The position numbers and the translations under genes are program-made. From the NCBI GenBank assembly GCA_012295275.1, contig CM022679.1:22583915-22647914 (forward strand): a stretch of DNA of 64,000 bases, written 5' to 3'. Shown in pieces: positions 14,912 through 49,205 of the stretch. Position 1 is the stretch's first letter. Each line of letters opens with the position of its first letter. The notes beneath the pieces were generated by a model that saw only the letters and a list, made by a program, of their open reading frames with translations, was not told where the DNA came from and made no database searches. Source of the DNA: Chrysomallon squamiferum. Its lineage: Eukaryota; Mollusca; Gastropoda; Neomphalida; Peltospiridae.

Positions 14912-14962
14912 ACTTCCGTTCGAGACAAATTTTGAAACATAGACGTAAAAAATCCACTAAAT
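14912..14962 (+). CDS. Locus 1 candidate exon: basic segment
   Basis: A 51-nt stretch between the acceptor aactttcag and the donor gtaagt, phase 1 in and 1 out. It encodes FRSRQILKHRRKKSTK, a strongly basic peptide. If included it would put a long positive stretch before the hydrophobic exon at 15391. If skipped, the micro start exon joins that exon directly and gives a standard signal peptide. It sits beside (ATT)n, so chance is possible. Confidence 0.4.
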
Positions 14963-15027
14963 GTAAGTAAATGCTTATTGCTAGTTTTGAACATACGACA
15001 CCAATTATTATCGATTGTTATTACGAT

Positions 15028-15200
15028 TATTATTATTTTTATTATTATTACTATTATTATTATTATTATTATTATTATTATTATTATTATTATTATTATT
15101 ATTACGATTATTACTTTTTTTATTATTATTACGATTATTATTATTATTATTATTATTATTATTATTATTATTATTATTATTATTATTATTATTATTATTA
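15028..15200. repeat. (ATT)n microsatellite
   Basis: Nearly pure ATT/TTA triplets with a few TTACGATTA interruptions. The three overlapping open frames here are low-complexity and not genes. Confidence 0.95.
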
Positions 15201-15390
15201 TTTTAATTTTGTATTGAGCTGTGAGTAAATTAGATTGGATTATAGCTTATTAATTCATTATTGTTTAAACAATGGTGAGATAGTTAGACTGGATTATAAA
15301 TATATTTATTTATTATTTTTCTTTAATCCAGTGGTGTGGTAATTGCACTGGATTATAATAAATAATTATATATATATTTTTTTTTTTCAG

Positions 15391-15471
15391 CGATTATTTT
15401 AATTGTATTACTGGCACACGATTTCGCAACTTCCACTGGAGTTTCCGAATCAATTTTTGAAAAAAATATCA
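15391..15471 (+). CDS. Locus 1 exon: signal-peptide-like hydrophobic segment
   Basis: An 81-nt exon between a strong acceptor (T-run then cag, ending 15390) and the donor gtgaga, phase 1 in and 1 out. The first codon is completed by the upstream exon: G gives Ala, T gives Ser. The translation reads IILIVLLAHDFATSTG and on to SESIFEKNI. Joined to a MASRT or MATVK start exon it has the n-, h- and c-regions of a secretory signal peptide, with likely cleavage near FATS/TG. The start residues and the hydrophobic core lie on different exons, so secretion would depend on splicing. Membrane anchoring is less likely because the hydrophobic core is only about 9-10 residues. Confidence 0.55.
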
Positions 15472-16795
15472 GTGAGATTTTAATTTTCTCTATTTCATTT
15501 TGCTTGTTCATTTTATCAAAACAGCCTTTAAAATACTGACCCAGAATATTCTCTGTATGTAAGATCTACAACGACTATACCGGAACTTTAGTCCTATTTA
15601 TGAAGCTTTACAAAGGATAACAATAGTTTAGAATAAATGCTAAATTAAGTTGTATCTTCACTAATGACAGCATTTCCTAAATTATGATATACTTCAAAAA
15701 ATATTTACTGTATCTTCTTAAAACATATTCCATAATAAATTATATCATTAGATTATGCCTTATAAGACACGTACGTATTATACAATTAGACATCCAACAC
15801 ACTGCGTAAACTCGAACATTGAAGACTTCAGTATTACTGAACTAATGACTCATAGCACCAGAGGGGTACTTGCAGAACTGCAAGATATTATTTGTGACTG
15901 ATAATTTCAAATACTAAATGTGTGTATGTATATATGTACATATTTTCACTGTGACAATTTGTCAGTCATGATACAAACACATATAATCATACACAGGGTG
16001 TACTGGAAAAATCTCTTCACTCTGTAGAAACGTTAGGCCGAAATTAGCTTTGTAAAGGCGAAAAAAACGAAGACAATACGACATTACCAAGCCACTGGCA
16101 GAAATTAAAATTAAACAACTTCATGCATACACTGATATTTTCATCATACAGATTGATGCCATAAATGATAATAGTGATTTAACAACAGTTTTATCCTTAT
16201 GTTTGTTTACGATTACTTGCAGCCGGCTTTCTCGAGTCTCGGTCAGTTGTAATCTTTTCTGTTTATGTGATTGTGTGCAGTCAGTTATCACGTCTTTCTC
16301 AGTTTAATTTGTACACAAGTTTAAAAGAACTGTTTATAGTCAAACCCTAACCACAAGAAATCATTTTTCCAGCTATTCATAGTTGGTCATATGATCGCTT
16401 TCTCCGTAACATAGGCGAAAGGTCTATATCAGTTAATGAAGTGATATAGAAAGAAATTTGGGTGTACTGTCCTTTAAAAATTACATAGAAACACAGAAGG
16501 CGTATTAATCTTTTTCATTACAGTTTCATGTCCTTGAAAGCAATGGAAACAAAGGAAATTCGCTGTCCAGTAGCAAAATGTATTCAGGTGGTCATCGGAT
16601 ACAAATGGAAACAAAATATACCGATATATGCAACATACAAGTTATAAAAACAAATAAAAAATAAAAAATAAAATAATATAAAAATGAAAAAAAGAATAGA
16701 CTTACAACTATTATCGTTGAAGGTACAACGACATTAATAACAGTAGGGCTCACTTCTTCCAGTCGAGTGAATCATTCATTTTATTCCCCTTGGAA
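15472..16795. other. Intron-like unique sequence
   Basis: I see no exon with both splice sites and phase 1 here. A possible acceptor at about 16500-16523 is followed by a 39-codon frame without a convincing donor. Confidence 0.5.
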
Positions 16796-17047
16796 AAATT
16801 TAATAATCCATGAGCTCGTCAATGTAACAAGCCTGTATATGCAGCACGTAATAACAACATTTAAGAAAATTAAGATGGAGTTGAAGAATTTGTTGTATAT
16901 ATTAAAGCACTCTCAATAATAGCTTGTTTCATTAACATAATAAACTACTAATTACTTTGAAACACATATTTGGATTTCAGGCTTAATGAATCAATAACTT
17001 GAAATGTTTTCTCTGTTTCAAACGATTCTTTATTTCTGATTTTCCAG

Positions 17048-17137
17048 AAAAATATATGATGAGAAGCATGCAAGAAATCCCAATATTAAATATTGAAAAC
17101 AAAGCACAAATTTTCATTATTCAAAAAATCAATTCAG
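17048..17137 (+). pseudogene. Locus 1 exon A1, donor lost
   Basis: 90 nt after ttttccag. It codes KYMMRSMQEIPILNIENKAQ and then IFIIQKINS. The equivalent donors of A2 and A3 read gttagt, but here the first base is A (attagt at 17138), so the 5' splice site is gone. The reading frame is intact, which implies a recent loss. Confidence 0.75.
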
Positions 17138-18433
17138 ATTAGTACTAATTTCGTTCATGAATCTCTCTCTCTCTCTCTCTCTCTCTCTCTCTCTCTCTCT
17201 CTCTCTCTCTCTCTCTCTCTCTCTCTCTCTCTCTCTCTCTCTGTCTATCTATCTATCTATCTAGCTCTCTCTCTGTCTGTGTTTGTGACTGTTTATCTAC
17301 ATCTATCTGTTACTCTGTACACAGACACAGACAGACATATATATATATATATATATATATATGTTTATTTATTTATTTGTTTGTTATTCGTTTTATTTTA
17401 TTGATTTATTTATTTAGTTTTGTCAAATGCAAAGTCTTTCTTCGCCACAAGAAAATGCTTCACAGTTGCTAATGATTATTTAACTGAAATGTCCATCATA
17501 TGTCGTTATCAATTCATTAGAGAACGCAAATCATCATTGTCTTTCTTGTTGCTTATAAACAAGGATTTCTTAATGTAAGAAATAACTAAAAATAGGAATT
17601 ATTATTCGACATAAAGCTTCAAGTCGCTAACGTATCCATTTCCACTGGGTTCGAGAGGAAGCTTTATAATTTAACACGAAAAGAATGATAAGGTCATTCC
17701 CAGTACAACAGTTTAAATATATCTATATTTATAATTAAAAATAAAATAAGTTATTGGTAAAACAAACTTTACAAGTTTATGCCATTATACAAAGAAAAGA
17801 AATTGATGAAATTTTAATACCTCCTTTAAAGAATGAAGTATCTTACTTATTAAGAAATTGAAGTAGCCATCAGACCCAATATAATTTCAGAAAACAAGAA
17901 ATCATTTTTTTAAATGTTATTATTTACTTCACCCTTACCAAAATTATAGTTAGATTCATTTAGCTGTGTTTTCTTAAACTTTCTTCTTCTTCCTCTTGTT
18001 CTTTTACGCTCCCCACGGACAATTCATGCATTGCAAACGACTTCTATAAAAGTAATCTTAATTTCTATTTACTTTCTATCTAATTAATAATATCGGCAGT
18101 TCAGTCCAGTAATGGCAAAGATGTTATTCGATAACAATATACAAATATAATTTACAATATTTATCTGGAAATTTTAAAGAAAAATGTAATAATCCATGAG
18201 CTCGTTAATGTAACAAGCCTATATATGCAGCACGTAATAACAACATTTAAGAAAATTAAGATGGAGTTGAAGAATTTTTTGTATATATTAAAGCACTCTC
18301 AATAATAGCTTGTTTCATTAACATAATAAACTACTAATTACTTTGAAACACATATTTGGATTTCAGGCTTAATGAATCAATAACTTGAAATGTTTTCTCT
18401 GTTTCAAACGATTCTTTATTTTTGATTTTCCAG

Positions 18434-47918: not shown

Positions 47919-48116
47919 GTGAGTATGTTTTCTTCTTTTCTGTTTTTTCTCAAATACTTTTGTTTTTGCTGTTTTTAAAAAAATAAAATAAAAATAAAAA
48001 CATTAAGTATCTTCCAAACGTCTGACATGTATAGTTTGATGTCAGAGAAAGGTGTGAAAATGTAGATTTGATTTGTGAGCATACTGGATAAGACAAATAA
48101 GTGTGTTTTATTCCAG

Positions 48117-48227
48117 GGATCCAAGAGCTGTCAAATCTTCACAGAGGTTGTGAGAATATGTTGTATGTTAATGGCAGCATTAGGAACAGTCACATAGAAG
48201 TAAATAACAAAACAGAAATTTGGAACT
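48117..48227 (+). CDS. Locus 1 exon L
   Basis: 111 nt, the longest module, acceptor ttattccag and donor gtaagt, phase 1-1. It reads IQELSNLHRGCENMLYVNGS, then IRNSHIEVNNKTEIWN. Two sequons (NGS, NKT). The YVNGSIRNSHI core is shared with exon N (YANGSITNNNI) and with exon O of locus 2 (VANGNINTITVNN). Confidence 0.7.
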
Positions 48228-48294
48228 GTAAGTAAAGGTTTAGTTCATACGTCTTTATGAAATAGATAAACGATTATTAATTTTCAGTATTTTA

Positions 48295-48475
48295 TTATTA
48301 TTATTATTATTACTAAAAAATTGAGAGAGAGAAACGGAAAGATAACAGAAAGATATAGAGATTGAAAAACGAGGAAGAAAAAGAAGAAGAAGACGAGAGA
48401 GAGAGAGAGAGAGAGGGAGAGAGAGAGAGAGAGAGAGAGAGAGAGAGAGAGAGAGAGAGAGAGAGAGAGAGAGTC
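48295..48475. repeat. (ATT)n and (GA)n tracts
   Basis: Short ATT run followed by an interrupted GA run (about 48392-48473) in the intron after exon L. Confidence 0.9.
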
Positions 48476-48719
48476 ATCAGTAAATGTCATGCGAACTTTC
48501 AAAATTACTAGCTTGAAAACTCTTTTGTTAAGCCACGTTAAGTTCCAAGAATCTAAAACTTTTAGGGAAGACAGCATTTTTCGCATTCATTGTATTTATA
48601 GCAAGCTCGTCATATCTTTTTCAAATCTGAATTTCCAGAATAATATTCCAAATAATATTCCAGAATAAATGAAACATAAATTAATCTGTAAGGTTGAATA
48701 TTTTACATGCTTATTTCAG

Positions 48720-48779
48720 GTGTCGTACTTGTAAATGGCAACGACTTCCCTGATCCGCGAATTCCAGAAAACATTTGTG
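48720..48779 (+). CDS. Locus 1 exon M
   Basis: 60 nt, acceptor gcttatttcag and donor gtatgt, phase 1-1. It reads VVLVNGNDFPDPRIPENIC. Paralogue of exon C, one codon shorter. Confidence 0.65.
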
Positions 48780-49112
48780 GTATGTATTAGTACATCAAAA
48801 TATCATATTGTTTTACATATTGAAAGATAGTAACAAAAGCAATCTAGACATTATTTGCATTTTTTAAATTTTCAGCTGATTTAAAAATAAGAAGAGAAAT
48901 AATAATAAAATAAAATAAAATAAAACAAATACAAATAAATTAAATAAATAAATAAATAATAAATAAATAATAATGATTATTAATATTATTATGATGATGA
49001 TGATGATGGTGATGACGATGGTGGTGATAATCATAATTTTTAAAAGAAAATCAGATATTTTTTTGTTGTTTGTTTGTTTTTCTGGCACAAGAATGTATTG
49101 GTATATTTTCAG

Positions 49113-49205
49113 AACCATCTCAGACGACGAATAGAAACCAACTGGATTCTTCAGTCTATGCTAATGGTTCGATAACGAACAACAATATCAGAATACAATT
49201 TTAAT
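49113..49205 (+). CDS. Locus 1 exon N, with in-frame stop
   Basis: 93 nt, acceptor tattttcag and donor gtaagt. It enters in phase 1 and reads PSQTTNRNQLDSSVYANGSI and then TNNNIRIQF, then TAA at 49202-49204, one base before the donor. The exon length and donor are still those of a symmetric module. The stop therefore looks like a mutation that made this the last coding exon; paralogous exons L and O read on at this point. Skipping N would leave the frame open. Confidence 0.7.

What the first reader, a model, noticed from the sequence alone, without database searches (positions are those of the whole stretch)
14912..49205. A gene made almost entirely of phase 1-1 micro-exons
I count 28 exon candidates between 14912 and 49205, one with a dead donor. 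All have AG/GT-type borders except that donor, all are multiples of 3 (51-111 nt) and all enter and leave in phase 1. Chance cannot explain this. Any exon can be skipped, repeated or reordered without frameshift. The principle is that of flatworm micro-exon genes or other diversity-generating secreted families, but the sequences match nothing I know.
Basis: partly seen in the sequence, partly recalled or inferred. Interest (0 to 1): 0.92.

Follow-up and report, generated by a model that had tools for sequence, protein, structure and literature searches.

The report
Snail gene of swappable in-frame exons
A gene in what is most likely the deep-sea scaly-foot snail is built almost wholly from short exons that can be added or lost without breaking the reading frame, and some of those exons have changed much faster than the introns around them, so it may be a gene that evolves by amplifying and rewriting small protein pieces.

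Summary
In detail: 28 of 28 exons exist, 51-111 nt, all multiples of 3, phase 1 in and out; exon 3 lacks a donor. Splice-chain statistics alone are weak proof: samples of the same genome score nearly as high. Comparison proves coding: two paralogues upstream keep splice sites and phase-1 frame in 25 of 25 mapped exons, with exon indels only in threes. The gene grew by exon-plus-intron duplication; one paralogue has its own array with a different 81-nt exon in homologous introns. In part of the gene exons outrun introns (copies 4 and 5: 7 of 90 exon sites differ, all nonsynonymous, 1 of 435 intron sites), but exons 16-28 show dN/dS 0.63-0.84 overall. Splicing, expression and function were not testable. 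It works like schistosome micro-exon genes in principle; exon size and lineage speak against membership. Likely organism: Chrysomallon squamiferum (inferred).

The parts
8320..8335 (+). first-exon cassette 1, ATGGCGTCTCGGACAG, 16 nt, GT donor, leaves in phase 1 (MASRT)
9090..9105 (+). first-exon cassette 2, GT donor, phase 1 exit
9435..9450 (+). cassette 3, GC instead of GT after it
10174..10189 (+). first-exon cassette 4, GT donor, phase 1 exit
10255..10270 (+). cassette 5, GC after it
11030..11045 (+). first-exon cassette 6, GT donor, phase 1 exit
11378..11393 (+). cassette 7, GC after it
13593..13608 (+). cassette 8, GA after it (no donor)
14912..14962 (+). exon 1, 51 nt, basic FRSRQILKHRRKKSTK; three 51-nt homologues in paralogue P2
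15391..15471 (+). exon 2, 81 nt, hydrophobic signal-like segment SIILIVLLA (mean Kyte-Doolittle 3.34)
17048..17137 (+). exon 3, 90 nt, dead donor (AT)
18434..18523 (+). exon 4, 90 nt
19800..19889 (+). exon 5, 90 nt
22178..22270 (+). exon 6, 93 nt, copy 1 of 9
24577..24669 (+). exon 7, copy 2 of 9
27020..27112 (+). exon 8, copy 3 of 9
29416..29508 (+). exon 9, copy 4 of 9
31853..31945 (+). exon 10, copy 5 of 9
34245..34337 (+). exon 11, copy 6 of 9
36649..36741 (+). exon 12, copy 7 of 9
39066..39158 (+). exon 13, copy 8 of 9
41496..41588 (+). exon 14, copy 9 of 9
41996..42085 (+). exon 15, 90 nt, left intron 90% identical to that of exons 3-5
42887..42949 (+). exon 16, 63 nt, exon and intron relative of exon 27
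43215..43265 (+). exon 17, 51 nt
43695..43781 (+). exon 18, 87 nt
44415..44471 (+). exon 19, 57 nt
44712..44813 (+). exon 20, 102 nt
45224..45274 (+). exon 21, 51 nt, exon and intron relative of exon 23
45950..46036 (+). exon 22, 87 nt (in P1; not found in the fetched P2 sequence)
46156..46227 (+). exon 23, 72 nt
46953..47030 (+). exon 24, 78 nt
47850..47918 (+). exon 25, 69 nt
48117..48227 (+). exon 26, 111 nt
48720..48779 (+). exon 27, 60 nt (63 nt in both paralogues)
49113..49205 (+). exon 28, 93 nt, holds the stop TAA one base before its donor
17162..42237 (+). (TC)n arrays starting 24-59 nt after the donor position of each of exons 3-15
43349..48472 (+). (GA)n arrays in the introns after exons 17 (43349-43430), 23 (46599-46818) and 26 (48417-48472)

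Best explanation
A member of a small local gene family (three copies found on contig C15) that encodes a probably secreted, N-glycosylated protein made of small modules, one per symmetric phase 1-1 exon. Transcription would start at one of several tandem first-exon cassettes (MASRT...), pass through a basic and a hydrophobic signal-like exon, run through arrays of repeated exons and end in a set of single-copy exons with the stop in exon 28. Because every module is in-frame on its own, unequal crossing over can amplify or delete exon-plus-intron units, and transcripts could skip modules without damage; several duplicated exons then changed faster than their introns. Shown: the exons, frame and splice-site conservation in paralogues, duplication, exon-over-intron divergence in some copies. 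Inferred: splicing, start sites, secretion, organism. Guessed: the role, most likely at the animal's outer surface or in contact with microbes, prey or gametes.
For: Exons exact. P1 keeps 13 of 13 and P2 12 of 12 mapped exons with AG/GT. Exon indels 3 of 3 multiples of 3 in 1758 columns, flanking intron indels 6 of 55 in 4734 columns; phase-1 frame open in 43 of 43 exons of the three copies, phase 0 in 11 of 43, phase 2 in 0 of 43 (openness partly built into the choice of exons). Neutral drift of 0.20 per site over ten exons would give 5.0 stops on average, none in 0.7% of 2000 runs; of 0.10, 2.7 stops, none in 6.7%. Eight first-exon cassettes among 9 matches, 0.46 expected. Internal exon-intron duplication. 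Exon 4 vs 5: 7 of 90 against 1 of 435, p 2.4e-5, 7 nonsynonymous and 0 synonymous. Exon 3 vs 15: left intron 178/198, exon 47/89, below the shuffled level. P1 side: a different 81-nt phase 1-1 exon in homologous units. Ten N-glycosylation sequons.
Against: No transcript seen. Weak sites: acceptor of exon 1 and donor of exon 15 both at the 81st percentile. Splice-chain score not clearly beyond genome background. Exon 3 has no donor. Acceleration is not general: 16 vs 27 none, 6 and 14 vs 15 none, nine array copies 3/93 against 12/373, exons 16-28 across copies dN/dS 0.63, 0.84, 0.70 with pN not above pS, P1-side array exon vs window exons p 0.06-0.57. No exon 2 was found in the fetched parts of P1 or P2; P2's exon 28 has no stop within the exon.
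Confidence: 0.72

Rival explanations
1. The real gene is exons 1-2 and 15-28; the repeated units with exons 3-14 are an expanded intronic satellite whose exon-like pieces are skipped or dead.
For: Exon 3 has lost its donor; among the nine copies the exon is no less variable than the intron (3/93 vs 12/373); in the 20 kb fetched of P2 only short pieces of the unit were found.
Against: Copies 4 and 5 differ in the exon far more than in the intron and only at nonsynonymous sites; 11 of 12 array exons keep both splice sites and 12 of 12 an open frame; the separate array beside P1 also holds an open phase 1-1 exon, in 4 copies.
Confidence: 0.25
2. A decayed or silent family: a gene recently dead and drifting.
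For: Dead donor in exon 3; dN/dS 0.63-0.84, not separable from 1; P2 exon 28 without the stop.
Against: No frameshift in the 23 exon pairs aligned, although their 100-nt intron flanks collected 55 indels; chance of no stop 0.7% at drift 0.20, 6.7% at 0.10.
Confidence: 0.1
3. Copy numbers, and part of the array, are assembly artefacts of nanopore reads over near-identical units.
For: Assembly made from nanopore reads with Illumina polishing of a heterozygous animal (PMC7142155 passages; if the organism is right); nine near-identical units; N stretches beside the window and between the P1 pieces.
Against: Units differ in TC length and at 12 of 373 flanking intron sites; it would not touch exons 15-28 or the paralogues.
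Confidence: 0.1
4. Mutually exclusive choice among array exons, steered by pairing of their (TC)n arrays with (GA)n arrays downstream.
For: A TC array follows exons 3-15 by 24-59 nt and three introns downstream hold GA arrays; the P1 side has the same layout, and the fetched P2 sequence only GA arrays; predicted duplex energy -179.1 kcal/mol for one pair.
Against: Such arrays occur in 9 of 14 random genome samples of 10 kb and would be copied along with the units; the nine exons are nearly identical, so choice among them gives little variety.
Confidence: 0.08

Closest known systems
Schistosome micro-exon genes (MEGs)
   Same: Coding region mostly short symmetric exons; signal peptide; internal duplication of exon patterns in one family; fast evolution, three with dN/dS above 1 in the mature part (PMC4350168 and PMC5825161, passages seen)
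   Different: MEG exons are 6-36 bp, here 51-111; most likely a gastropod; variant transcripts not known here; no MEG sequence was compared directly
Conotoxin genes of cone snails
   Same: Gastropod; short, highly variable coding exons (PMC10561478 and PMC8152183, passages seen)
   Different: Most of those have 3 exons; nothing here points to a venom, and no cysteine framework was looked for
Tropoelastin and titin PEVK region (recalled)
   Same: Many small exons, multiples of 3, phase 1-1, duplicated in arrays (recalled)
   Different: Composition here led by I, K, S, D, N; not rich in G/V/P or P/E/V/K
Dscam-type exon clusters (recalled)
   Same: Tandem arrays of duplicated exons in one gene
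   Different: No immunoglobulin domain found; the nine array exons are near-identical; exclusivity untested

Membership tests
Schistosome MEG | about 80% of coding sequence in symmetric exons of 6-36 bp | tested here: not met
   28 of 28 exons are symmetric but 51-111 nt; definition from PMC5825161 passage
Schistosome MEG | signal peptide | tested here: inconclusive
   hydrophobic core SIILIVLLA after a basic stretch; no predictor at hand; start by inference
Schistosome MEG | protein variants by alternative splicing | not testable with these tools
   no transcripts available
Schistosome MEG | flatworm gene | tested here: not met
   genome fits Chrysomallon squamiferum by contig number; an inference
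Schistosome MEG | sequence kinship to known MEGs | tested here: inconclusive
   no Pfam match above cut-off, none in the protein collection, where a control query from the same window also found nothing; no direct comparison made
Tropoelastin / titin PEVK | characteristic amino-acid composition | tested here: not met
   composition (criteria recalled)
Dscam-type exon cluster | immunoglobulin-domain protein | tested here: not met
   no such Pfam match
Dscam-type exon cluster | mutually exclusive splicing with pairing elements | not testable with these tools
   TC/GA arrays could pair, but are common in the genome

The most novel reading that the evidence does not exclude
A diversity-generating exon chassis: conserved introns with a (TC)n tract act as an amplifiable frame-neutral holder in which the coding payload is rewritten to saturation while the holder stays recognisable, each paralogue amplifying its own payload, with a promoter/first-exon array in front and module choice in RNA possibly set by TC-GA pairing. 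It would be an animal system that makes variable secreted proteins outside the known immune and venom families.
Probability: 0.2. Interest if true: 0.92.

Novelty: new variant of a known kind. Interest (0 to 1): 0.7.

Why it matters
If transcripts confirm it, a non-parasitic animal has reached the frame-neutral exon design of schistosome micro-exon genes on its own, with larger exons, tandem start cassettes and per-paralogue exon arrays. The three copies, with introns as a neutral yardstick, make it possible to measure how new protein modules arise by exon duplication.

Tried and rejected
Protein collection: exons 15-28 inside the full model, 3559 candidates, none at E<=1; alone, 998 candidates, none at E<=10. 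A control, the RPA-like ORF of the window, also found none at E<=0.001 of 233, so the absence says little. PDB (exons 15-28): one match at E 0.74, chance. Pfam (460-residue version with one copy of the array exon): best 14.3 bits against a cut-off of 26.8, rejected. No tRNA, no Rfam match at gathering score. First thought of a cephalopod (note) was dropped when the genome came out at 404.6 Mb in 22 contigs. Positive selection over the whole gene: not supported for exons 16-28. Splice-chain score as proof: rejected after genome controls. Papers: ten searches (micro-exon with cephalopod, octopus, schistosome, mollusc; tandem or symmetrical exons; venom and lysin introns; scaly-foot snail) listed no paper that by title or start of abstract reports this gene; of the papers I saw passages only, of PMC7142155, PMC4350168, PMC5825161, PMC10561478 and PMC8152183.
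Full report
Check. All 28 exons are there: 51-111 nt, 28 of 28 multiples of 3, all phase 1-1 and open up to the TAA in exon 28, AG before 28 of 28, GT after 27 of 28. Twelve of the 28 fall in two sets of copies (3-5 and 6-14), leaving 18 distinct exons; exon 15 shares intron sequence with both sets. Against shuffles the chain is far out (58.5 against at most 16.4 in 200 shuffles of 42.8-49.3 kb), but against 15 random 10-kb samples of the same genome it is not: 7 of 90 strand/phase combinations reach 77.6 with looser cut-offs, and without repeats the best is 73.5 against 75.4. 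Some of those samples may hold real genes; I did not sort them. Splice sites alone therefore do not prove the gene.

What does. A protein search of the whole genome (404,604,130 bases) returned 40 matches at E<=10, all on contig C15, from 43 scored candidates, a lower bound; the window is C15:22583915-22647914. Beside the window gene (W) there are two paralogues: P1 on the + strand (exons 16-28 at about 22517047-22523642) and P2 on the - strand (about 22542493-22536710). P1 keeps 13 of 13 exons and P2 12 of 12 mapped ones with AG/GT and open phase-1 frame; in place of 21-22-23 P2 shows one exon of that type, and it has an extra exon of type 26 in front of exon 16. Exons 1-15 of W have no counterpart mapped in P1. 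Over the three copies phase 1 is open in 43 of 43 exons, phase 0 in 11, phase 2 in 0; exon indels, in 23 exon pairs, are 3, 3 and 6 nt, while 100-nt intron flanks hold 55 indels, 6 of them multiples of 3.

The start. Exon 1 has no ATG. Upstream, 8.3-13.6 kb, eight copies of ATGGCGTCTC stand in repeated units (9 matches to a 13-mer with up to two mismatches in the window, 0.46 expected). Four (8320, 9090, 10174, 11030) are followed by GT after 16 nt, that is phase 1; three by GC, one by GA. This would give MASRT-D-FRSRQILKHRRKKSTK-SIILIVLLAHDFATSTG. The motif resembles the short-leader start element TISU (recalled). P2 has three 51-nt homologues of exon 1 with AG/GT borders, which supports that exon despite its weak acceptor. 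How common the cassette is in the genome is unknown: that search did not complete.

How it grew. Exon-plus-intron duplications are visible at DNA level: 3-5 with 6-14 and 15, 16 with 27, 21 with 23. Exons 18, 20, 26 and 28 also resemble each other as peptides. Upstream of P1 on the same strand (22504001-22514000) lies an array of about 1.58-kb units, 66-77% identical to the window's units, with 4 copies of an 81-nt phase 1-1 exon whose sequence shows no clear similarity to the window's array exons. That it belongs to P1 is inferred from position; about 4.8 kb between them read N. W and P1 introns differ by 0-6% after exons 18-24 but by 25-27% after 16 and 17 and 13% after 27, as gene conversion would leave.

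Speed. Exon 4 against 5: 7 of 90 exon sites, 1 of 435 intron sites (p 2.4e-5), 7 nonsynonymous, 0 synonymous; two further differences lie in the TC array. Exon 3 against 4 and 5: 8 of 90 each against 6 and 5 of 285 (p 0.007, 0.004), 7 nonsynonymous and 1 synonymous. Exons 3, 4, 5 against 15: left intron 90%, exon near or below the level of shuffled sequence (p 3e-10, 7e-8, 7e-5; not independent); 21 against 23 p 0.012; in the pairs looked at the fall begins at the splice sites. Weak or absent: 5 against 6 p 0.02, 4 against 7 p 0.07, 6 and 14 against 15 no difference, 16 against 27 none, the nine copies none, the P1-side exon against the window's none at 0.05. Exons 16-28 between copies: dN/dS 0.63 (W-P1), 0.84 (W-P2), 0.70 (P1-P2); within W-P1 exons 18-25 give 1.56 on 6 and 1 changes, not significant. 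So a burst of change in the duplicated 5' part, weak constraint in the 3' part. An exon-only mutation process instead of selection is not excluded.

Organism. 15 long contigs (for C15, for C1-C14) and short ones (six of seven looked at) match the 15 linkage groups plus seven unanchored contigs of Chrysomallon squamiferum (PMC7142155, passages); that its final total is 404.6 Mb is recalled, not seen. This is inference.

Function. The 768-residue model has ten N-glycosylation sequons, 16 cysteines, no second membrane segment by hydropathy, no known domain found. A secreted or extracellular modular glycoprotein in contact with a changing partner is my choice; probability for that role about 0.4, and nothing here tells immune, symbiosis, reproduction or armour apart.

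Noticed in passing
window 16080-16154 (+): Peptide similar to exon 5 (44%, E 0.007): possibly a decayed further exon copy between exons 2 and 3.
   Followed up: no
L009 (C15:22573915-22583914), minus strand: Two more ATGGCGTCT cassettes with GT after 16 nt on the opposite strand, as if P2 and the window gene fired apart from a shared region.
   Followed up: partly
window 50722-52434: About 209-nt tandem repeat; related sequence also lies downstream of P2, so the 3' flank was duplicated with the gene.
   Followed up: partly
window 55690-57660 (+): ORF with a 42-nt repeat (SYDASGISDWSQQ), then an ORF with a replication factor A C-terminal domain (E 8.9e-10).
   Followed up: partly
window 62662-63998 (-): Rhodopsin-type receptor pieces (7tm_1 E 2.8e-9 for 63633-63998), nearest in PDB to substance P receptor (E 2.8e-5).
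   Followed up: partly
window 2109-2633 (-): FLYWCH zinc finger (E 4.9e-8).
   Followed up: no
window 5740-7200: Tandem repeats of 104-167 nt, not examined.
   Followed up: no
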